Assembly: GCF_014773275.1 (NCBI RefSeq)
Contig: NZ_JACWMW010000003.1
Coordinates: forward strand, 310,001-374,000
Direction: 5' to 3'
Source: Mucilaginibacter rigui
GTDB lineage: Bacteria; Bacteroidota; Bacteroidia; Sphingobacteriales; Sphingobacteriaceae
Length of the DNA: 64,000 bases
Position 1 is the first letter of the stretch; each line of letters starts with the position of its first letter. Below are positions 7,726 to 50,669 of the stretch, piece by piece. The notes under the pieces are model-generated. The model saw only the letters and a program-made list of their open reading frames with translations, made no database searches and was not told where the DNA came from. A program made the translations under genes and the position numbers.

Positions 7726-10700
7726 ATGAAGTTTTTTTTACGACAAAAATTATTCTATTGGAGCTTTTGCTGCCTTATGCTAATGTGCCCCGTTGGCGTA
7801 GCCTGGGCACAAAGCGTTAGTATTAGTGGGACTGTAAAAGATGAGCAGAACCAAACTTTGCCTGGTGTAACCGTATCTGTTAAAGGCGAAAAGCAAATTA
7901 CAGTAACAAATGATAATGGCAAATTTAGCGTACAGGCAACAAAAGCCCCTGCTACTTTGGTTTTTACTTATATGGGGTTTGCCCCAAAAGAGGTAACCAC
8001 ATCGGCTGATAATAACCTTAATGTGATCATGAAGGTTTCATCAAGTAATTTAAACGAGGTGGTAATTGTTGGTTATGGTACCCAAAAACGAGCCTCGTTA
8101 CTGGGTTCTGTTGCATCGGTACAGGCAGAGGAGTTAACCAAGGTGCCGGTAACCAACTTGTCGCAGGCATTAGTTGGCAGGTTGCCGGGCTTAATAACAA
8201 ACCAATCATCCGGGTTGCCCGGCTCAGATCAGGTTAACCTTTATGTAAGAGGGTTCAGCTCGTTAAATAAAAACTCACCGCTTATTTTGGTTGATGGTGT
8301 TGAAAGACCATTTAATAATCTTGATCCCTCAGAAATTGAATCGGTAACTATATTAAAAGATGCGGCATCTGCAGCTGTTTACGGTGTAAGGGGTGCAACT
8401 GGTGTTATATTGGTAACTACTAAACGAGGGAAAGATGGTAAACCTACTTTTACATATGCAACATCCTATACGCTAAGCTCAAATACCCGTATGCCCGAGT
8501 ATTTAAACGGAAAGGAATTTGTAAACTGGTATAATTATGCTGACGAAATAAATGGCCGCAGCAATACATTTTCTCAATCAGTTGTCGATAAAGTAAATAA
8601 TGGCGATCCTGACGGGATTTACGGCAATACCAACTGGATGAAACAAGTGCTGAAATCAACAGCGCCAACCATGCAGCACAATCTTACATTAAGAGGCGGA
8701 AACCAGTCTGTTAAATATTTTACTTCATTAGGGTACCTTAATCAGCAAGGTATAATAAAGGGGGTTGACTATAAAAGGTATAACCTCAGAACCAATTTGG
8801 ATGCAACCGTAACCAAAGATTTCTCTATTTCGCTTGATGTGGCCGGCAATGTTGCCGGGGCAAACAGCCCGCAGGTATCTAATTTTACAGGTAACGGCAG
8901 TTCGGTATCAACCAACCTCATGAACCAGATTATTATTGCACATCCTTACCTAAATGCAAAAACACCCGATGGGAGATACTTAACATCGTCGCTGTTATCA
9001 GGCGATAACCCACTCGCGGCGCGCGACCTGTCTGGTTATAATAACAATGATAATACAGGCGTACAAAGTAGTTTGTCTTTAAAATACAAACCATCGTTTT
9101 TAGATGGTTTATCATTTAAAGTTGTAGGGAGTTATGATAAAAACTTTTATCATACAAAATCATTTTACACCCCCTATACATTATGGACAGCCGACCCGGC
9201 AAGCGGCAATTCATCTTTATATGAAACCGCCTCGCCTTATGGTACCATTGCAATGTTGAGCGAGAGCTATACGCAATCATCCCGCTGGACAATGCAGGAA
9301 TTTATAAACTATAGTAAAACATTTAACAAAAAGCACGCTGTCGACGCTTTGATTGTAGCCGAGCAGTCTAGCTATAATACAACCGGTTTAGGTGCATCTG
9401 CACAGAATTTTGATCTTACAGATCTTGATCAGTTTGGCTTTGCCAAAGATAACCCCAATAAACCGTACGGAAGTAATACTACCGTTAATCGCCTTGGCTA
9501 TGTAGGCAGGGTAAATTATACCTATGATAACCGTTATTTAGCTGAGTTCTCGGGTCGTGTTGATGCTTCAACTAATTTCCCTGCCAATAACAGGTATGGT
9601 TTTTTCCCGTCAGTGTCTGCCGGTTGGCGTATTTCTGAAGAAAATTTCTTCAAGCAATGGCATACAGCTGTGTCAAATTTAAAACTTACAGCATCTTTCG
9701 GGATACTGGGTAATGATGTTACAAACGGTTCATATGAATACCTGAGGTTTATGAATATATCCGGCAGCCCGGTTGCAAACCTTGGCGGGGGTAACGTAAA
9801 CGGTATGTTGCCAACATCTTATCCAAATACCAATTTAACCTGGGAAAAAGCAAAAACATCAAACATCGGCCTAAATATAGAGTTTTGGCACGGCCTGCTC
9901 AGCGCCGAGCTTAATGGTTTTTACAAGTTAACAACCAATATACTTACCAGCGTATCCAACACCTATCCACCATCTATTGGCGGATATTACCCAACAACGG
10001 TTAACTCAGGTAAAGTTGACAACCGCGGCCTTGAATTGGTAATCAATCATAAAAACAAGGTGAATGATTTTTCTTATGCCATTACAGGTAGTGTAAGTTG
10101 GGCCCACAACCGTATCCTAAGTATGGATCAGTCTGCTGATATTCCCGAATATCAAAGCCTCATTGGCAGATCAATCGGGGCTAAAACCGGTTTGGTTGCA
10201 TTAGGCTTGTTTCAAAGTGATGCCGAGGCTAAGTCGTCTCCGGTAGTAAGCACATCTGCAAAGGCCGGTGATATTAAATTTAAGGATATTAACGGCGATG
10301 GTAAAATATCGTATGAGCAGGATGTAACTGTTATTGGCCGAAGCAGCATCCCCGAGTTGAATTACAGCTTTAATTTTAGCTCGAGCTACAAAAACTTCGA
10401 CCTTTCATTCCTGGTACAGGGTGCAGCTATTTGCGATAACGCATTAATGGGTTATTATGACGGGATTGGTTGGGATGATACACAGTTTACCCGCACATTT
10501 TATAATGGCGGTAACACCCCTAAATATTTAGTGGAAAACTCATGGACCCCGGCCAACACTTCAGGTAAATATCCAAGGCTTGATAATCAATGGCGGTCAA
10601 ACAATAACTGGGCTTCATCTATGTGGATAGTTAACGGTGCTTATTTGCGGTTAAAAAATGTTCAGCTGGCATATAACCTGCCCAAATTGCTAAAAACAAA

Positions 10701-45027: not shown

Positions 45028-45390
45028 AAAACTACGTGATTTTAAAATAGTTATAGGTTTCTTGCTTTTTAATAAATAGGTTTATAACACTAAGTAATAA
45101 AACCTATGTCAACCTTTCGTATCTCCACTGATGCCTGTTTGGCATCTTTAACAACGGGCAACCCAGTGCGGCAAACGCACTTCAACAATATATTAATGAA
45201 ATTTTTTTAGCATTTGATGTAGCTTATAAAAAGCCACGCCCATCCTGTAATGATATATTAAATACCTGAGGGTATAGCAATAAAGAAACTTCTCGCGAAA
45301 GTAAAGGAGCATGCACTTTAAAAATACATGCAGCCAAAATTGCCGGGGCGTGGTTACGGCAAAGATAAACTAATTATAAAATTTTTATTT
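45028..45390. other. Region without a confident gene before the peptide/TlpA cluster
   Basis: About 360 bp hold no frame with both a start and a recognisable protein. One plus-strand frame (about 45119-45256) is open for some 45 codons without an ATG and reads protein-like (for example ANALQQYINEIFLAFDVAY), then continues past one TGA. It could be a gene remnant or chance. The last part is AT-rich and may contain the promoter for the downstream operon. Confidence 0.35.
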
Positions 45391-45628
45391 ATGTCGAAAT
45401 TTATGAAACTCAGCGAGCTGAGATAAAGATTGTATTAAGTAGATTACGTAACCGGGTGGGCCTTTCGACGGAGTAAATCCGAACTGTGAGGGGACTTCCG
45501 GTACCGATGATTACTATTGCTGCAGCGCACATTCTACAATCTTTTTAGGAAATACTGATTGTTTAAGTGCATTGGCTTCTTGTAACGGGTCTATGATAAC
45601 TAACGATCCTGAAAGGTGTAATAATTAA
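45391..45628 (+). pseudogene. Cys-rich double-glycine-leader peptide gene, broken in the leader (copy 1)
   Basis: An ATG at 45391 begins a leader-like MSKFMKLSELR that stops at 45424-45426. In another frame, a region open from 45452 to the TAA at 45626-45628 encodes 58 residues with a Gly-Gly (PGGPFDG), then a polar core with six Cys (NPNCEGTSGTDDYYCCSA, LGNTDCLSALASC and ERCNN). This layout is that of Bacteroidota bacteriocin/natural-product precursors with GG leaders. Leader and core are out of frame and separated by stops, so the gene appears broken. A perfect hairpin and a TlpA gene follow. Confidence 0.6.
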
Positions 45629-45635
45629 TCAATAA

Positions 45636-45662
45636 TTAGCAGGCAGAAACCCTGCCTGCTAA
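45636..45662 (+). terminator. Hairpin between peptide gene 1 and TlpA gene 1
   Basis: A perfect 11-bp stem (TTAGCAGGCAG / CTGCCTGCTAA) with a 5-nt loop is followed by TTTATTTA. It lies 8 bp after the peptide stop and 20 bp before the TlpA ATG. It could be a terminator or an attenuator that lets the peptide be expressed more than the enzyme. Confidence 0.7.
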
Positions 45663-45681
45663 TTTATTTAAGTGTTTTATA

Positions 45682-46833
45682 ATGAAATATTACCTGCACA
45701 TATTTTTGTTTTTAGCTGTTTGTTTCATTTTCTCTTGTAAAAGAAAATCATCCATTCTAATTTCAGGGGCTGTTGATAGCCTTGATGCAACGATGGTTAG
45801 GGTTACCAATACCGATTTTACTATTACCTATGATTCGACCTTTGTGATAAATAATTCATTTAAGATCAATATTGAACTGCCGGAGAATGGATTTTATAAA
45901 TTAGATTTTTCGAGTAAAACCCCGTACAAAAAATATCCATGGAGCCACTCCTGTTTGTTTTATGCAGATAGCAAAGCTTCATACTCTTTTAAAGCTTCCG
46001 GGCCTTCAGAAATTTTACAAAATAGATATAACTTTAGTTCAAATTCAGATACTCAGAATAAACTTAATGAATTTTATAAACTGGTTTCTCTTAAAAGCGA
46101 TACTATATGGCATCAAAAAATGTATTACCTAAATTTATCGGATCGTGCGCTTGCGAAGGGAAGTGATAGTTTATACCGTAAATACCTTGATACAGTAAGC
46201 CGGATACAGGATTATTTAAAAAAAGCTTATTTAACAAGCATTCATCAATATATCCCCGAAAACAAAAACACTTTAATAACCCCCTATTTGATAAGCAGCG
46301 TACCTGATTTATTTGAGCGATATAATTTTTACAAGAAAGTTTTAGATGATTTAAGCCCGGCCGTAAAGCAAACAAAATATTATGATGAAGCTAACGGTCT
46401 TTTACTGGCGATAAAAAACTTATACATAGGCGCCCATTCACCACCTTTGTATGGCCAAAACGGCAACGAATTTGAGGTAAACTATGCCGGCAAAAAAGTG
46501 ATATTAATAGATTTTTGGGCATCTTATTGCGCACCATGCCGGCAGCAGATACCAGATATGAAGAAGCTGTATGATCAATACGAAAATAAAGGCTTTGATA
46601 TTATTTCAGTTTCTATTGATGAAGACCCATTGAAATGGGGCAGGGCATCAAAGCAGGACTCAATCCCCTGGCATAATATTGCCGAGTTAACAGATCAAAG
46701 CAATTCAAAAAACATTAAAAACTTTGTTGTTAAAAGCATCCCGGCCAACTATGTACTAAATAACAAAGGTGAACTTATTGGGCGCAATGTTGAGTTGGAT
46801 AGCCTGGAAAAAATACTTAAGAAGATAGAATAG
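45682..46833 (+). CDS. TlpA-family thiol-disulfide oxidoreductase lipoprotein, copy 1
   Basis: The 383-residue protein has a lipobox FIFSC near residue 19, an N-terminal DUF4369-like beta domain (SILISGAVDSLDATMVRVTN), a helical middle, and a C-terminal thioredoxin/AhpC-TSA domain with active site WASYCAPCRQQ. The cis-Pro region is SIPANYVL. It acts in the periplasm. The last 110 residues are almost identical to TlpA copy 2, while the first 270 are clearly diverged. It follows a Cys-rich peptide relic, so it may have handled disulfides in that peptide. Confidence 0.92.
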   Translation: MKYYLHIFLFLAVCFIFSCKRKSSILISGAVDSLDATMVRVTNTDFTITYDSTFVINNSFKINIELPENGFYKLDFSSKTPYKKYPWSHSCLFYADSKASYSFKASGPSEILQNRYNFSSNSDTQNKLNEFYKLVSLKSDTIWHQKMYYLNLSDRALAKGSDSLYRKYLDTVSRIQDYLKKAYLTSIHQYIPENKNTLITPYLISSVPDLFERYNFYKKVLDDLSPAVKQTKYYDEANGLLLAIKNLYIGAHSPPLYGQNGNEFEVNYAGKKVILIDFWASYCAPCRQQIPDMKKLYDQYENKGFDIISVSIDEDPLKWGRASKQDSIPWHNIAELTDQSNSKNIKNFVVKSIPANYVLNNKGELIGRNVELDSLEKILKKIE

Positions 46834-46882
46834 GTTTCAGGTAAAACTTGCGGGACAGCCCCGGTAGCATAGTTTTTTTAAT

Positions 46883-46908
46883 TCCTTTGGCAGCTGGCTG
46901 CCAAAGGA
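46883..46908 (+). terminator. Hairpin between TlpA copies 1 and 2
   Basis: A perfect 11-bp stem (TCCTTTGGCAG / CTGCCAAAGGA) with a CTGG loop is preceded by TTTTTTTAA and followed by TTAATTTA. It stands 50 bp after the copy 1 stop, like the hairpins that follow the two peptide relics, and could be an attenuator or terminator. Confidence 0.6.
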
Positions 46909-46956
46909 TTAATTTACTCACTTTCGGTACATACTCAAATTTGTAGAAAACTGTTT

Positions 46957-48114
46957 ATGAGAATATTGATAAGGTTACCTTTTTTAATAATTGCAATGTT
47001 TACTTTGTCATGTAAACACAGTGCCAACGTGACCATAACCGGTAGTTTGGATAGTGCTGAGGGTACAATAGTTAAAATAGAGGATGCCAACCATCCTATT
47101 GCATACGACTCAACTACTGTAAAAAATGGGAAATTCAACCTTACTATTTCGTTGCCCGATGAGGGGTTTTACGAATTGGTTTTTTATACTCAAACACCAG
47201 CATCAGACAAAGGGAGGTGGGTGCATCAAATAGTATTTTATGCTGAAAATTTAAAAAAACATGTGTTCTCGGCAAATGGGCCAACAGCTTTGAGCTATAA
47301 TTATAATTGGCAATCATCCTCATATAATCAAAATAAATTAAAAGAGTTTAATGCTCTTGTTAAGTTAAAAAGAGATACTTTACAACACAAAAGAAAATAT
47401 TATCTTAATGAGGCGGATAAGGCACTAAATGCCGACAAAAATATTGTATATAATGCATATTTGGATTCTGCCACCAAAGCCGAGGATGAAATAAGGAATG
47501 CTTATTTGTATGCTACACATCAGTTTATACGCAGTAACCCAAATACTGTTGTAACGCCTTACTTAATTACTGAAGTGTATGATATGTTTGAGAATTATGC
47601 TTTATACAAAAAGGCAATGGCTACACTAAGCCCAATAGCTAAAAACAACAAATATTATAAAGAGGCCGATGCGCTTTTACAATCAGCTCAAAAAATAAAT
47701 ATCGGTACTGTGATCCCGCAGTTAGCAGGCAAAACCCTTAACGGATCTGATTTTAAAATGAATTATACAGGTAAAAAGATTATCCTGTTAGATTTTTGGG
47801 CATCTTATTGCGCACCATGCCGGCAGCAGATACCGGATATGAAGAAGCTGTATGATCAATACAAAAATAAAGGCTTTGATATTATTTCAGTTTCTATTGA
47901 TGAAGACCCATTGAAATGGGGCAGGGCATCAAAGCAGGACTCAATCCCCTGGCATAATATTGCCGAGTTAACAGATCAAAGCAATTCAAAAAACATTAAA
48001 AACTTTGTTGTTAAAAGTATCCCGGCCAACTATGTACTAAATAACAAAGGCGAACTTATTGGACGCAATGTTGAGTTGGATAGCCTGGAAAAAATACTTA
48101 AGAAGATAAAATAG
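46957..48114 (+). CDS. TlpA-family thiol-disulfide oxidoreductase lipoprotein, copy 2
   Basis: The 385-residue protein has lipobox FTLSC near residue 19, a DUF4369-like domain (VTITGSLDSAEGTIVKIEDA) and a thioredoxin domain with WASYCAPCRQQ. It is a paralogue of the upstream gene. From DFWASYC to the C-terminus only two residues differ (Glu/Lys twice), and DNA identity continues past the stop codon. The N-terminal two thirds are far more diverged. Copy 3 follows after only 25 bp. Confidence 0.92.
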   Translation: MRILIRLPFLIIAMFTLSCKHSANVTITGSLDSAEGTIVKIEDANHPIAYDSTTVKNGKFNLTISLPDEGFYELVFYTQTPASDKGRWVHQIVFYAENLKKHVFSANGPTALSYNYNWQSSSYNQNKLKEFNALVKLKRDTLQHKRKYYLNEADKALNADKNIVYNAYLDSATKAEDEIRNAYLYATHQFIRSNPNTVVTPYLITEVYDMFENYALYKKAMATLSPIAKNNKYYKEADALLQSAQKINIGTVIPQLAGKTLNGSDFKMNYTGKKIILLDFWASYCAPCRQQIPDMKKLYDQYKNKGFDIISVSIDEDPLKWGRASKQDSIPWHNIAELTDQSNSKNIKNFVVKSIPANYVLNNKGELIGRNVELDSLEKILKKIK

Positions 48115-48139
48115 GTTTGAGGTAAAACTTGTAAAGTTA

Positions 48140-49264
48140 ATGGTATTGAAAACAAAGTTCTTTTTACTTCTGCTGGTTGTTCCTTTAGCCGGTTACTCTC
48201 AAAGTAACTTACTTATAAAAGGTACCGCCACACTGTTAAAAGATGGGACTGAAATTAAGCTGTCAAAAAAGCTTCCGAAACGATTAGCAGATGAAAAGCC
48301 TCTTATAACAAAAATAAAGGATCATAAATTTGAGTTTTCCGTACAAACAAATGGCAGCATTCTTTATACTCTATCTAATGGAAAAGGTGGTAGCCAGTTG
48401 TTTTTATGCCCCGGGCAGGCAACAATCCTTGTGAGGGATTCGATCGTAAGAAACGTATCCGTTACTGGTAACTCAACCGCACTTGATTATCAAAAATATC
48501 ACGCTTTATTAGATACAGTTAGCTTATACGAGAAATATGGTAGGGCAAGAGCAGATTATTATAACTATACACGTAACAACCACAATATTGATAGTGCTAT
48601 ACTAAATGCTAAAATACAAAAGAGAGATGCTTTGTTAATCCTATTAAACGATCAGCTATTAGATTTAAGTTTAGGTTGGATAAAACAACACCCCAATTCC
48701 CCTATAAATCCGTTCGTTTTGTATGGCCAGATTACATACATGCCTGAGGATGATTTCAGGAAATCCTATTATTCATTAGCTGCATCTCAAAAAAAGGATA
48801 TTTGGGCAAAAGAATCAAAATACATGATTGATAGCCTGTTTATTGGCGGGATAGCGCCGTCAGTATCAGAAACTGACGCGAAGGGAAATATAGTAACCCT
48901 TTCAAGTTTCCGTGGGAAATATGTGCTGCTTGATTTTTGGGCAGCCTGGTGTATTCCATGTAGGGAAGAAAACCCCAACGTGGTGAAAGCAGCAGAAAAA
49001 TATAAAGGTCAAAATTTTACTGTGTTGAGTATCTCATTAGATGATGACAAAACTGCATGGCTAAAAGCGATTGAAAAGGATGGTTTAGGCTGGACACATC
49101 TATCTGCATTAAAAGGCTGGAATGACGGTATTTCTAAAAAGTATTATGTTTCATCCATACCTGCTAATTTTTTGATAGACCCTAATGGAAAAATTGTTGC
49201 CAAAAACATCCGGGGTGAGGAATTGAATAAAACGCTAAGCATGTTATTAAGTAAAGAAAAATAG
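48140..49264 (+). CDS. TlpA-family thiol-disulfide oxidoreductase, copy 3
   Basis: The 374-residue protein has a Sec signal peptide (FFLLLLVVPLAGYS, cleaved before QSN) and no lipobox, so it is probably soluble in the periplasm. The N-terminal domain is DUF4369-like (LLIKGTATLLKDGTEIKLSK). The C-terminal thioredoxin domain has WAAWCIPCREE and SSIPANFLIDPNGKIV. It lacks the near-identity seen between copies 1 and 2. It ends directly before the second peptide relic, whose frame it shares. Confidence 0.9.
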   Translation: MVLKTKFFLLLLVVPLAGYSQSNLLIKGTATLLKDGTEIKLSKKLPKRLADEKPLITKIKDHKFEFSVQTNGSILYTLSNGKGGSQLFLCPGQATILVRDSIVRNVSVTGNSTALDYQKYHALLDTVSLYEKYGRARADYYNYTRNNHNIDSAILNAKIQKRDALLILLNDQLLDLSLGWIKQHPNSPINPFVLYGQITYMPEDDFRKSYYSLAASQKKDIWAKESKYMIDSLFIGGIAPSVSETDAKGNIVTLSSFRGKYVLLDFWAAWCIPCREENPNVVKAAEKYKGQNFTVLSISLDDDKTAWLKAIEKDGLGWTHLSALKGWNDGISKKYYVSSIPANFLIDPNGKIVAKNIRGEELNKTLSMLLSKEK

Positions 49265-49274
49265 GTTAACAAAC

Positions 49275-49468
49275 CAGCGAGCTGAGATAAATATGTAATT
49301 GGTGGGCTATATGGAGGTGGGCATACTTAACCGGGAGAGCCGGGTGACTCTGGAAACGTAAAACATGGCACATGCTCTGGTAAAAAAACCGACAATTACA
49401 CATGGACATGCGTTTGTAATTGGGGCGGTTACCAAACAACCAATGGAGGCACTAACTGCAATGTGTAA
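49275..49468 (+). pseudogene. Cys-rich double-glycine-leader peptide gene, truncated (copy 2)
   Basis: Directly after TlpA copy 3 a leader remnant reads DKYVIGG at 49286-49306, continues LYGGGHT, then meets an in-frame TAA (49328-49330) and goes on as PGEPGDSGNVKHGTCSGKK and TDNYTWTCVCNWGGYQTT to NCNV and TAA at 49466-49468. The core has four Cys. The start codon and first half of the leader are missing. It shares the 17-nt string CAGCGAGCTGAGATAAA (49275-49291) with copy 1 at 45411-45427. Both leaders are interrupted at this place. Confidence 0.55.
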
Positions 49469-49474
49469 ATTTTT

Positions 49475-49498
49475 AGCCAGTGGTGCAAACCACTGGCT
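49475..49498 (+). terminator. Hairpin between peptide gene 2 and TlpA gene 4
   Basis: A perfect 10-bp stem (AGCCAGTGGT / ACCACTGGCT) with a GCAA tetraloop lies 7 bp after the peptide stop and 17 bp before the TlpA copy 4 start. It is the same arrangement as after peptide 1. The following sequence is A-rich (GATTTAAAAAAT), so an attenuator or mRNA-stabilising role is as likely as termination. Confidence 0.6.
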
Positions 49499-49514
49499 GA
49501 TTTAAAAAATAAAA

Positions 49515-50669
49515 ATGAAAACCATTAAATTATTGCTTTTTGTAACTGTTGTATTTTTTAGTTGTAAAAGAATTGAACCGCAGGGACTAACTATAAATTT
49601 ATCTACCTTGAAAAAAACATCAAGGCTTAAGATTGTGATGTCTGAATTTAAATTTAACAATACTTCTACAACATGGAACTGGACTAAATTAGAAAGTATT
49701 TTTATTGACAAAAATGCCATTCAAGGAGAGTTCAAATGGCCTGTTGAATATAAAAATAAATTTGTTGCTGAATTTGAAATCTATAATGCCGGAGGGAAAA
49801 TCATCGCTTCTTCCAATGATTTTATCTATTCACAAGCAAGTTTAATTGCAGAAAATGATCCTAAGTCCAAAATTATTAACGCAAACGGATATGAAGATGC
49901 GGTAATAATGGCTGTAAAAGGAGGCGAAAATAACTTGTATGCAAATAAAAGCTTTTTATCTCCACCAAAAATCCGTTCATCTGGAAATTTCCTTTCAAAA
50001 ATCAAGAACACTAAAACCTTAAAAAACGACAATTCTACAGTGTACCAGCAATGGAAGGCTTATGAGGAGAATGTTATCAATCAAGTTGAAAAATATCCGG
50101 ATTATTATTACACCATGCACAATTTGATCGATGTTGTGAGCATGATAAGTAATGCAACCTTAGAAAAATGTATTTCGAAAATAGATGCAAATCTATTGAA
50201 AACAGACGAGGGCAAATTTTTAACTACCTATTTAAATAATTCTAACAAATTAGTGATCGGATCAAAATTTCCCGATTTCAAGGTTAACAACGGCGAAAAA
50301 GACGTGGATGCAAAATCACTGCTTATAAAAGGCAAATATTATTTCATAGATTTTTGGGCGAGCTGGTGTGGGCCTTGCCGGGAACAGATGCAACATTTGA
50401 AAACCGTATATAGTAAAATTGACACCAATAAGGTCCAGTTTGTGTCACTAAGTGTGGATATAAAGCAAGAAAATTGGGTTAAAGCCTCCAAAGCTGAAAA
50501 TTTAAAATGGCCGAGCTATCTTCAAAGTACTCAGCCCGATCAGAATTTGTTTGTGCTTTTTTGTCTGCGTTCTATACCACAGAATATTTTAATTGATAAA
50601 ACCGGGACCATCATCAATAAAAACCTAACTGAAAACGAATTAGACAACTTTCTTAAAGCAGATAAGTAA
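49515..50669 (+). CDS. TlpA-family thiol-disulfide oxidoreductase lipoprotein, copy 4
   Basis: The 384-residue protein has lipobox VFFSC (Cys near residue 17), a diverged N-terminal domain that I cannot assign firmly to DUF4369, and a C-terminal thioredoxin domain with WASWCGPCREQ and RSIPQNILIDKTGTI. It is the most diverged of the four TlpA genes, with an AT-rich 5' half. It follows peptide relic 2 and is the last gene before the right direct repeat, which begins 15 bp after its stop. Confidence 0.9.
   Translation: MKTIKLLLFVTVVFFSCKRIEPQGLTINLSTLKKTSRLKIVMSEFKFNNTSTTWNWTKLESIFIDKNAIQGEFKWPVEYKNKFVAEFEIYNAGGKIIASSNDFIYSQASLIAENDPKSKIINANGYEDAVIMAVKGGENNLYANKSFLSPPKIRSSGNFLSKIKNTKTLKNDNSTVYQQWKAYEENVINQVEKYPDYYYTMHNLIDVVSMISNATLEKCISKIDANLLKTDEGKFLTTYLNNSNKLVIGSKFPDFKVNNGEKDVDAKSLLIKGKYYFIDFWASWCGPCREQMQHLKTVYSKIDTNKVQFVSLSVDIKQENWVKASKAENLKWPSYLQSTQPDQNLFVLFCLRSIPQNILIDKTGTIINKNLTENELDNFLKADK

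What the first reader, a model, noticed from the sequence alone, without database searches (positions are those of the whole stretch)
45391..50669. Cys-rich double-glycine-leader peptide relics embedded in a four-copy TlpA oxidoreductase array
Two frames show Gly-Gly leaders followed by Cys-rich cores (six Cys in 45452-45628, four Cys in 49307-49468). Each is followed by a perfect hairpin and then a gene for a periplasmic thiol-disulfide oxidoreductase. Bacteroidota encode many GG-leader natural-product or bacteriocin-like precursors, and a disulfide-active partner is logical for Cys-rich cores. No C39 peptidase/ABC exporter or modifying enzyme is visible here, so export would have to come from elsewhere. 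A peptide system based on TlpA partners does not match any named RiPP or bacteriocin class I know.
Basis: partly seen in the sequence, partly recalled or inferred. Interest (0 to 1): 0.8.

Follow-up and report, generated by a model that had tools for sequence, protein, structure and literature searches.

The report
Decayed disulfide-peptide genes beside TlpA genes
Two broken small genes in this bacterium look like remnants of a large, still intact family of secreted peptides with paired cysteines that seem to travel with their own disulfide-making machinery, including an enzyme that joins a dead leader-recognition domain to a disulfide generator.

Summary
The observation largely holds. Two broken frames (six and four Cys) lie upstream of the first and fourth of four intact TlpA genes, each followed by a hairpin. 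They are relics of a real family: the region around the first relic's start is 86% identical to the upstream and leader of intact peptide genes in the same genome. All 52 non-redundant intact cores found by a strict leader pattern have an even Cys number, 41 of them six. The genus is Mucilaginibacter. The peptides cluster with a fusion enzyme: a C39 domain lacking catalytic Cys and His (22 of 22), then VKOR, then a DsbA-like thioredoxin, often near a C39-ABC exporter and TlpA. Most likely these are exported, disulfide-stapled peptides with a dedicated oxidase and TlpA partners. The closest known system is the bacteroidetocins (class IIf), but the fused machinery differs and I found no description of it in the searches made. 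The window copies are dead. Peptide function is untested.

The parts
45190..45390 (+). conserved upstream (promoter/5') region of GG-peptide genes, before relic 1
   Evidence: with the leader, 86% identical to the upstream of intact peptide genes C9:295.6k and C9:298.0k; shorter parts 83% at C9:292k, 79% at C7:598k, 78% at C12:95.6k
45391..45443 (+). relic 1 leader (MSKFMKLS...), frameshifted, Gly-Gly lost (45438-45443)
   Evidence: alignment to intact leaders; translation
45452..45628 (+). relic 1 core, open in another frame, six Cys
45634..45664 (.). hairpin after relic 1 (13-bp perfect stem); similar hairpins follow many intact peptide genes
45682..46833 (+). TlpA 1, 383 aa, FWASYCAPC
   Evidence: PF13905 67.7 bits
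46957..48114 (+). TlpA 2, 385 aa, DUF4369 + thioredoxin domain, FWASYCAPC
   Evidence: PF13905 70 bits, PF14289 31.7 bits
48140..49264 (+). TlpA 3, 374 aa, FWAAWCIPC
   Evidence: PF13905 74.1 bits
49265..49306 (+). relic 2 leader, no start codon in register, frameshifted, Gly-Gly kept at 49301-49306
49307..49468 (+). relic 2 core with in-frame stop at 49328-49330, then four Cys
49475..49498 (.). hairpin after relic 2 (10-bp perfect stem)
49515..50669 (+). TlpA 4, 384 aa, FWASWCGPC
   Evidence: PF13905 59.2 bits

Best explanation
The window holds two dead members of a family of double-glycine-leader, disulfide-stapled peptides of Mucilaginibacter. Living members work, most likely, as follows. 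A small precursor carries the leader LSRxEMKxVxGG and a variable core with an even number of Cys, usually six. A C39-ABC exporter with a HlyD-family partner recognises the leader, cuts after Gly-Gly and exports the core. A fusion enzyme keeps a catalytically dead C39 domain as a leader- or exporter-docking module, and its VKOR and DsbA-like parts pass disulfides to the core. A TlpA protein encoded next to part of the peptides reshuffles or checks the bridges. In the window the peptides have decayed while the four TlpA genes stayed intact. SHOWN here: the gene family, the even Cys number, the gene neighbourhoods, the predicted three-domain fold and the missing catalytic residues. INFERRED: cleavage, oxidation, docking, the role of TlpA, and any antibacterial or signalling activity.
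For: Relic 1 shares upstream and leader with intact genes. Even Cys number: 52 of 52 non-redundant cores chosen by leader alone, 41 with exactly six; p = 2e-16 against one half and 3e-10 against the even share of control small ORFs with at least two Cys, 1754 of 2679. TlpA directly downstream on the same strand: 13 of 32 peptides; in this genome 4 of 13 leader matches at E up to 0.02, with 23 Thioredoxin_8 matches genome-wide, p about 7e-7 if 4000 genes are assumed. The 19 TlpA genes found within 600 bases downstream of a peptide all keep CxxC. Fusion loci: of 38 distinct fusions with enough flank, 21 have a GG peptide within 5 kb (17 by the strict leader pattern), 27 a C39-ABC within 8 kb, 16 a TlpA within 6 kb; the 34 cores counted over all 44 fusions all have an even Cys number (29 of 29 by the strict pattern). 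The fusion lacks the C39 Cys and His in 22 of 22; the 17 of 20 exporter domains aligned beside them were picked by the DCG motif; of the other three, two keep the Cys and one was cut short by my gene caller. Six Cys are invariant in 23 fusions. The model matches a leader-bound C39 domain (6mpz, Z 16.2, rmsd 2.5, 122 aligned), HlyB's C39-like domain (3zua, Z 13.7, rmsd 3.5, 128), VKOR (6wv8, Z 14.0, rmsd 2.9, 140) and DsbA-type proteins (6nen, Z 18.1, rmsd 3.1, 159). The leader fits the exporter consensus. Deleting the oxidoreductase gene lowers bacteroidetocin activity.
Against: TlpA is not next to most peptides: 19 of 32 lack it directly downstream. In three genomes of two other families (L087, L179, L180) fusion, peptide and exporter occur without adjacent TlpA, so TlpA may be accessory. 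17 of 38 fusions showed no peptide by my wider pattern, 21 of 38 by the strict one. The C39 part should be cytosolic and the VKOR/thioredoxin active sites periplasmic (recalled VKOR topology), so direct leader-guided oxidation is not simple. The similar TlpA pair of the relative with the closest array (L088) has no peptide. Relic cores are not significantly similar to any intact core compared. One five-Cys and two Cys-free GG frames turn up with a looser leader pattern. No expression, export or disulfide data exist.
Confidence: 0.7

Rival explanations
1. The TlpA partner is a protection (immunity) factor: it reduces or unfolds its neighbour's peptide in the periplasm so the producer is not harmed, while the fusion alone makes the disulfides.
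For: TlpA-type proteins are usually reductants (recalled). Some loci keep fusion, peptide and exporter without TlpA. TlpA genes stand directly behind individual peptides. I saw no other recurrent immunity-like gene beside the peptides, but did not test this systematically.
Against: In bacteroidetocins the oxidoreductase gave no protection and its loss lowered toxin activity. 19 of 32 peptides have no TlpA directly downstream. The TlpA genes persist in the window after peptide loss.
Confidence: 0.15
2. The peptides are ordinary Cys-rich secreted peptides that bind metal or act as signals, and the neighbouring redox proteins serve general periplasmic redox needs.
For: Even Cys numbers could also serve metal sites. 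Five of the ten strongest peptide genes of this genome have neither a TlpA directly downstream nor the fusion as neighbour; one of these five has a peroxiredoxin-like gene on the opposite strand.
Against: 41 of 52 cores have exactly six Cys in widely differing spacings, judged by eye, and the fusion enzyme repeatedly sits beside peptides.
Confidence: 0.1
3. The two window frames are not gene relics but chance Cys-containing frames next to TlpA genes.
For: The cores show no significant similarity to intact cores and neither frame can be translated as one piece.
Against: Relic 1's upstream and leader match intact peptide genes at E down to 8e-80; relic 2 keeps part of the leader and Gly-Gly; both are followed by a hairpin, as many intact peptide genes are, and by a TlpA gene.
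Confidence: 0.03
4. The lesions are sequencing or assembly errors and one or both peptide genes are alive.
For: Both relics share one single-base gap in the leader; the genome is a draft of 14 contigs.
Against: Relic 1 also lost its Gly-Gly by substitutions, and relic 2 has no start codon in register plus an in-frame stop; reads could not be checked.
Confidence: 0.06

Closest known systems
Bacteroidetocins (class IIf bacteriocins, Bacteroidales; PMC6671954, section 8 and passages of other sections seen)
   Same: GG leader, small Cys-rich core, C39-type ABC exporter, dedicated thiol oxidoreductase whose deletion lowers activity
   Different: There: four Cys in A and B, a separate 5-TM protein, killing activity tested. 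Here: usually six Cys, many dispersed peptides, TlpA partners, and a fused dead-C39/VKOR/DsbA protein; no activity known
NF047798 leader_Chryseo, 'bacteriocin-like protein' (NCBIfam)
   Same: same type of leader motif ending in Gly-Gly
   Different: only 1 of 10 peptides scanned passes its cut-off; the model covers 18 leader positions and says nothing of Cys cores or partners
HlyB C39-like domain (CLD)
   Same: C39 fold without catalytic Cys; in HlyB it is needed to recruit the export substrate (PMC6363468 passages)
   Different: here the dead domain is attached to a disulfide-forming enzyme, not to an ABC transporter
Synechococcus-type VKOR-thioredoxin fusion (4nv2)
   Same: VKOR bundle followed by a thioredoxin-fold domain; structural match Z 13.8 (rmsd 2.9, 137 aligned) for the VKOR part
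   Different: extra N-terminal dead C39 domain and location beside GG-leader peptides
Pediocin PA-1 PedC and sublancin BdbB (recalled, no call)
   Same: a bacteriocin with its own disulfide helper
   Different: Gram-positive, single peptide, no C39-VKOR fusion

Membership tests
TIGR04149 (GG_sam_targ_CFB) | score over curated cut-off of 25 bits | tested here: not met
   15 matches in the genome, none over cut-off; best 18 bits among the ten peptides scanned
TIGR01847 (class II bacteriocin leader) | match in NCBIfam scan | tested here: not met
   not listed for any of ten peptides at E up to 0.1
NF047798 leader_Chryseo | score over cut-off of 23.5 bits | tested here: inconclusive
   1 of 10 peptides passes (24.5 bits); the others score 14 to 21 bits
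PCAT (C39-ABC) substrate | leader with Leu(-12), Glu(-8), hydrophobic -7 and -4, Gly-Gly | tested here: met
   these positions are invariant in the ten leaders aligned; consensus and pocket residues put together from PMC6363468 passages
Bacteroidetocins (class IIf) | GG leader, at least two Cys, C39-ABC exporter, thiol oxidoreductase in one region | tested here: met
   complete in L089 and others
Bacteroidetocins (class IIf) | separate 5-TM protein gene | tested here: inconclusive
   I did not search for it as such; in the loci read the VKOR fusion is the membrane partner that recurs
Bacteroidetocins (class IIf) | killing of Bacteroidales | not testable with these tools
   needs peptide and strains
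Active peptidase C39 | catalytic Cys and His | tested here: not met
   absent in 22 of 22 fusions; the 17 exporter domains aligned with them were chosen by the DCG motif, two of the three left out also keep the Cys
C39-like domain fold | C39 fold in predicted structure | tested here: met
   Z 16.2 to 6mpz (rmsd 2.5, 122 aligned), Z 13.7 to 3zua; PF03412 50.8 bits over cut-off 22
VKOR | PF07884 over cut-off and the two Cys pairs | tested here: met
   47.9 bits over 27.5; C205, C213, C284, C287 invariant in 23 sequences, taken by me as the two pairs
TlpA / Thioredoxin_8 | PF13905 over cut-off and CxxC | tested here: met
   four of four window proteins
Inhibitor cystine knot (M. pineti peptides only) | family score or fold match | tested here: inconclusive
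   knottin families match under their cut-offs; the best Foldseek matches are mostly knottins but every E is above 1
Secreted, disulfide-bonded mature peptide | mass of cleaved, oxidised core | not testable with these tools
   needs mass spectrometry

The most novel reading that the evidence does not exclude
The fusion is a leader-guided disulfide synthase: its dead C39 domain holds the Gly-Gly leader, or docks on the exporter, so that VKOR and the DsbA-like domain install all bridges in one hypervariable core while it is exported. One enzyme set would then staple many unrelated cores dispersed over the genome, a disulfide counterpart of the leader-guided enzymes of RiPP pathways.
Probability: 0.4. 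Interest if true: 0.85.

Novelty: new variant of a known kind. Interest (0 to 1): 0.62.

Why it matters
Bacteroidota encode many GG-leader peptides of unknown role. A strict even-Cys rule over 52 unrelated cores, plus a recurrent enzyme that joins a leader-type recognition fold to a disulfide generator, makes a testable system for stapling diverse peptides. It would open a source of multi-disulfide bacterial peptides and a way to ask how one folding machine serves hypervariable cores.

Tried and rejected
Relic cores were compared with 32 intact cores by alignment against 500 shuffles each: not significant for either (310 and 38 of 500 reach the best score), so membership rests on leader, upstream region and context. 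Rfam on 44.7-51.0 kb gave three matches at E up to 1, none near a gathering score. RNAalifold on five upstream regions gave a covariation term of only -0.04, so no RNA element is claimed. The TlpA array was sought in the genomes behind L139 and L140 with 45190-50669: only partial TlpA matches and the upstream element (40 of the first-look candidates scored in each). A knottin fold for the M. pineti peptides was considered and left open.

Parity caveats. The strict leader pattern gave 56 cores, 56 even (52 of 52 after dropping four that are over 60% alike to another). A looser pattern gave 63 cores: 60 even and non-zero, one with five Cys, two with none. Cys-free GG peptides also exist (L123, L180). 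Loci were chosen by leader or by fusion, mostly from one genus, so the sample is not independent. The control ORFs had to hold at least two Cys, which favours even numbers; against their share p is 3e-10 instead of 2e-16. One search used a wider leader pattern that I extended after seeing L087, L179 and L180, and required two Cys; the strict pattern without that requirement gives 17 of 38 fusions with a peptide and 29 of 29 even cores. Six fusion frames under 450 residues were left out. Genes were called by my own simple ORF scripts. The 4000 genes used for the adjacency probability are an assumption.

Paper searches for the C39-VKOR fusion with GG peptides: held no paper; one search held one, an unrelated review by its title; one search listed one, on pediocin and bactofencin; some searches showed listings (often only the first 12 to 15 of many), none of which I recognised as describing it. 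The library holds only part of the literature. PMC10352776 was searched for six redox terms: none present.
Full report
WHAT IS IN THE WINDOW. The window is G000:C8:310001-374000 of a 4.71 Mb draft genome in 14 contigs. The genus is Mucilaginibacter: 22 of 24 loci found by name with the fusion protein carry that name, two being unnamed Bacteroidetes, and contigs of genomes marked 'same genus' (G017, G033, G036) have the same lengths as named Mucilaginibacter contigs. Four intact TlpA-type genes lie in a row at 45682-50669. Upstream of the first and of the fourth lie the two frames of the finding. The frame at 45452-45628 has six Cys. The frame at 49307-49468 has an in-frame stop and then four Cys. 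Each is followed by a perfect hairpin.

WHY THEY ARE RELICS. A search of the genome with 45190-45450 finds all or part of this region upstream of five intact small genes: 86% identity at C9:295.6k and C9:298.0k (259 and 252 query bases), 83% at C9:292k (200), 79% at C7:598k (163) and 78% at C12:95.6k (106). The alignment shows the shared upstream region, the start, and the leader LSRAEMKNVLGG. Relic 1 has a frameshift inside the leader, Gly-Gly changed to Ser-Arg, and its core in another frame. Relic 2 has no start codon in register, a frameshifted leader, Gly-Gly kept, and a stop before the Cys part. Both share one gap in the leader, so one may derive from the other. The cores are not significantly similar to the 32 intact cores compared.

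THE LIVING FAMILY. With a leader profile the genome holds 13 matches at E up to 0.02, ten of them at 1e-11 or better. The profile was built from those ten. Four of the 13 are directly upstream of TlpA genes on the same strand: C9:295.5k, C9:298.0k, C6:481.7k and C9:213.5k. The genome has 23 Thioredoxin_8 matches, so four such neighbours of 13 are not expected by chance (p about 7e-7 if 4000 genes are assumed). At C9:291.8-298.1k three peptides, two TlpA-type genes and a 529-residue fusion gene lie on one strand. An exporter, a 725-residue C39-ABC protein with an adjacent HlyD-family gene, lies near C9:124.9k.

THE EVEN-CYSTEINE RULE. Peptides were collected by leader pattern alone. In one search, 32 of 32 cores have an even, non-zero number of Cys. 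In one search, with more loci, 56 of 56 do, and 52 of 52 after dropping cores over 60% alike; 41 of the 52 have exactly six (p = 2e-16 against one half). Small ORFs with at least two Cys from the same DNA split 1754 even to 925 odd; against that share p is 3e-10. A looser leader pattern gives 60 even of 63, one with five Cys and two with none. The parts of the relic cores still readable hold six and four. Spacings differ widely by eye, so the rule points to disulfide pairs rather than to one fold.

THE FUSION ENZYME. Pfam finds Peptidase_C39, VKOR and a DsbA-like thioredoxin in one protein. It is matched in 19 of 60 genomes searched, the window's own included: 17 of 36 others of the genus and 1 of 23 from elsewhere in the class. 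Of 149 genomes drawn over the class, own included, only 5 have it, in 4 of 99 genera. In 22 of 22 aligned fusions the C39 domain lacks the catalytic Cys and His; the 17 exporter domains aligned with them (of 20) were picked by the DCG motif, and of the other three two keep the Cys and one was cut short by my gene caller. Six Cys are invariant in 23 fusions, which I read as two VKOR pairs and the thioredoxin CxxC. The AlphaFold2 model (mean pLDDT 75.8, pTM 0.46) matches a leader-bound C39 domain (6mpz, Z 16.2, rmsd 2.5, 122 aligned), the HlyB C39-like domain (3zua, Z 13.7, rmsd 3.5, 128), VKOR (6wv8, Z 14.0, rmsd 2.9, 140) and DsbA/ScsC/BdbD proteins (6nen, Z 18.1, rmsd 3.1, 159). With this pTM the arrangement of the domains is not to be trusted.

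GENE NEIGHBOURHOODS. Of 44 distinct fusions, 38 have 4.5 kb on both sides. Of these, 21 have a GG peptide within 5 kb, 27 a C39-ABC gene within 8 kb, 16 a TlpA within 6 kb, 12 both a peptide and a TlpA, and 33 a peptide or an exporter; the 34 cores counted over all 44 all have an even Cys number. That pattern had been widened after seeing some loci; the strict one gives 17 of 38 and 29 of 29 even cores. L089 is the full set: fusion, peptide, TlpA, peptide, TlpA, C39-ABC, HlyD family. In three genomes of two other families (L087, L179, L180) fusion, peptide and exporter occur without adjacent TlpA. So fusion, peptide and exporter look like the core, and TlpA an accessory. The patterns miss some leaders: L086, L099 and L106 show GG peptides but none.

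HOW IT LIKELY WORKS. The leader fits C39-ABC exporters: consensus Leu(-12)-x3-Glu(-8)-Leu, with pockets for -4, -7 and -12 (PMC6363468 passages); these positions are invariant in the ten leaders aligned. The same paper says that dead C39-like domains recruit substrate in HlyB-type exporters. I infer that the dead domain of the fusion docks leader or exporter near the oxidase, and that TlpA partners reshuffle bridges. The expected topology (C39 cytosolic, VKOR and thioredoxin sites periplasmic; recalled) makes simple leader-guided oxidation uncertain. Whether the peptides kill, signal or do something else is unknown.

WHAT IS KNOWN. Bacteroidetocins (PMC6671954; section 8 read, passages of others seen) are GG-leader peptides of Bacteroidales, four Cys in A and B, with a C39-type ABC exporter, a 5-TM protein and a thiol oxidoreductase; deleting the TM gene, the oxidoreductase gene or the peptide gene lowers toxin activity. 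The present system is the same in outline and differs in the fused enzyme, the usual six Cys, the TlpA partners and the many dispersed peptides. My paper searches (listings only, several capped) showed no description of the fusion with such peptides.

VERDICT. The finding is sound as an observation of relics, with one misread Gly-Gly, and its refutation tests fail. The relics themselves are dead. The interest lies in the living system they point to.

Noticed in passing
window 45225-45390; same element at C9:295.6k, C9:298.0k, C9:292k, C7:598k: A conserved upstream region with several inverted repeats (by eye also CCACGCCC far upstream able to pair with GGGCGTGG) precedes several dispersed peptide genes; part of it is 84% identical in another species (L163). 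It could be shared regulation or a structured 5' region; Rfam has no match over threshold.
   Followed up: partly
window 46484-46833 and 47765-48114: The last 350 bases of TlpA 1 and TlpA 2 are 95% identical while the rest is 57% identical: recent gene conversion or partial duplication.
   Followed up: partly
L153 9660-10518 (Mucilaginibacter pineti): Three tandem GG peptides with spacing C-x6-C-x5-CC-x3-C-xn-C, like inhibitor cystine knots (spacing recalled); knottin families match under their cut-offs.
   Followed up: partly
L180 6959-7473: Three tandem, near-identical 47-residue GG peptides without any Cys, a few hundred bases from a C39-VKOR fusion.
   Followed up: no
L140 about 9700-9900: An eight-Cys GG peptide frame with the conserved upstream element but no ATG seen before the leader in its frame: another decaying gene or an unusual start codon.
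   Followed up: no
L164 1509-2252 (genome behind L139): A homologue of window TlpA 2 cut to 247 residues; Pfam finds only a weak DUF4369 match and no thioredoxin domain.
   Followed up: partly
L105 16621-17058: A 145-residue frame matching only the C-terminal thioredoxin part of the fusion, beside an intact peptide-TlpA pair: fusion genes seem to decay too.
   Followed up: no
G018 (12 stretches fetched, L108-L119): A 61% complete genome with 15 leader matches; the peptides recognised in the stretches have six-Cys cores and mostly stand among unrelated genes, one with a TlpA downstream (L108).
   Followed up: partly
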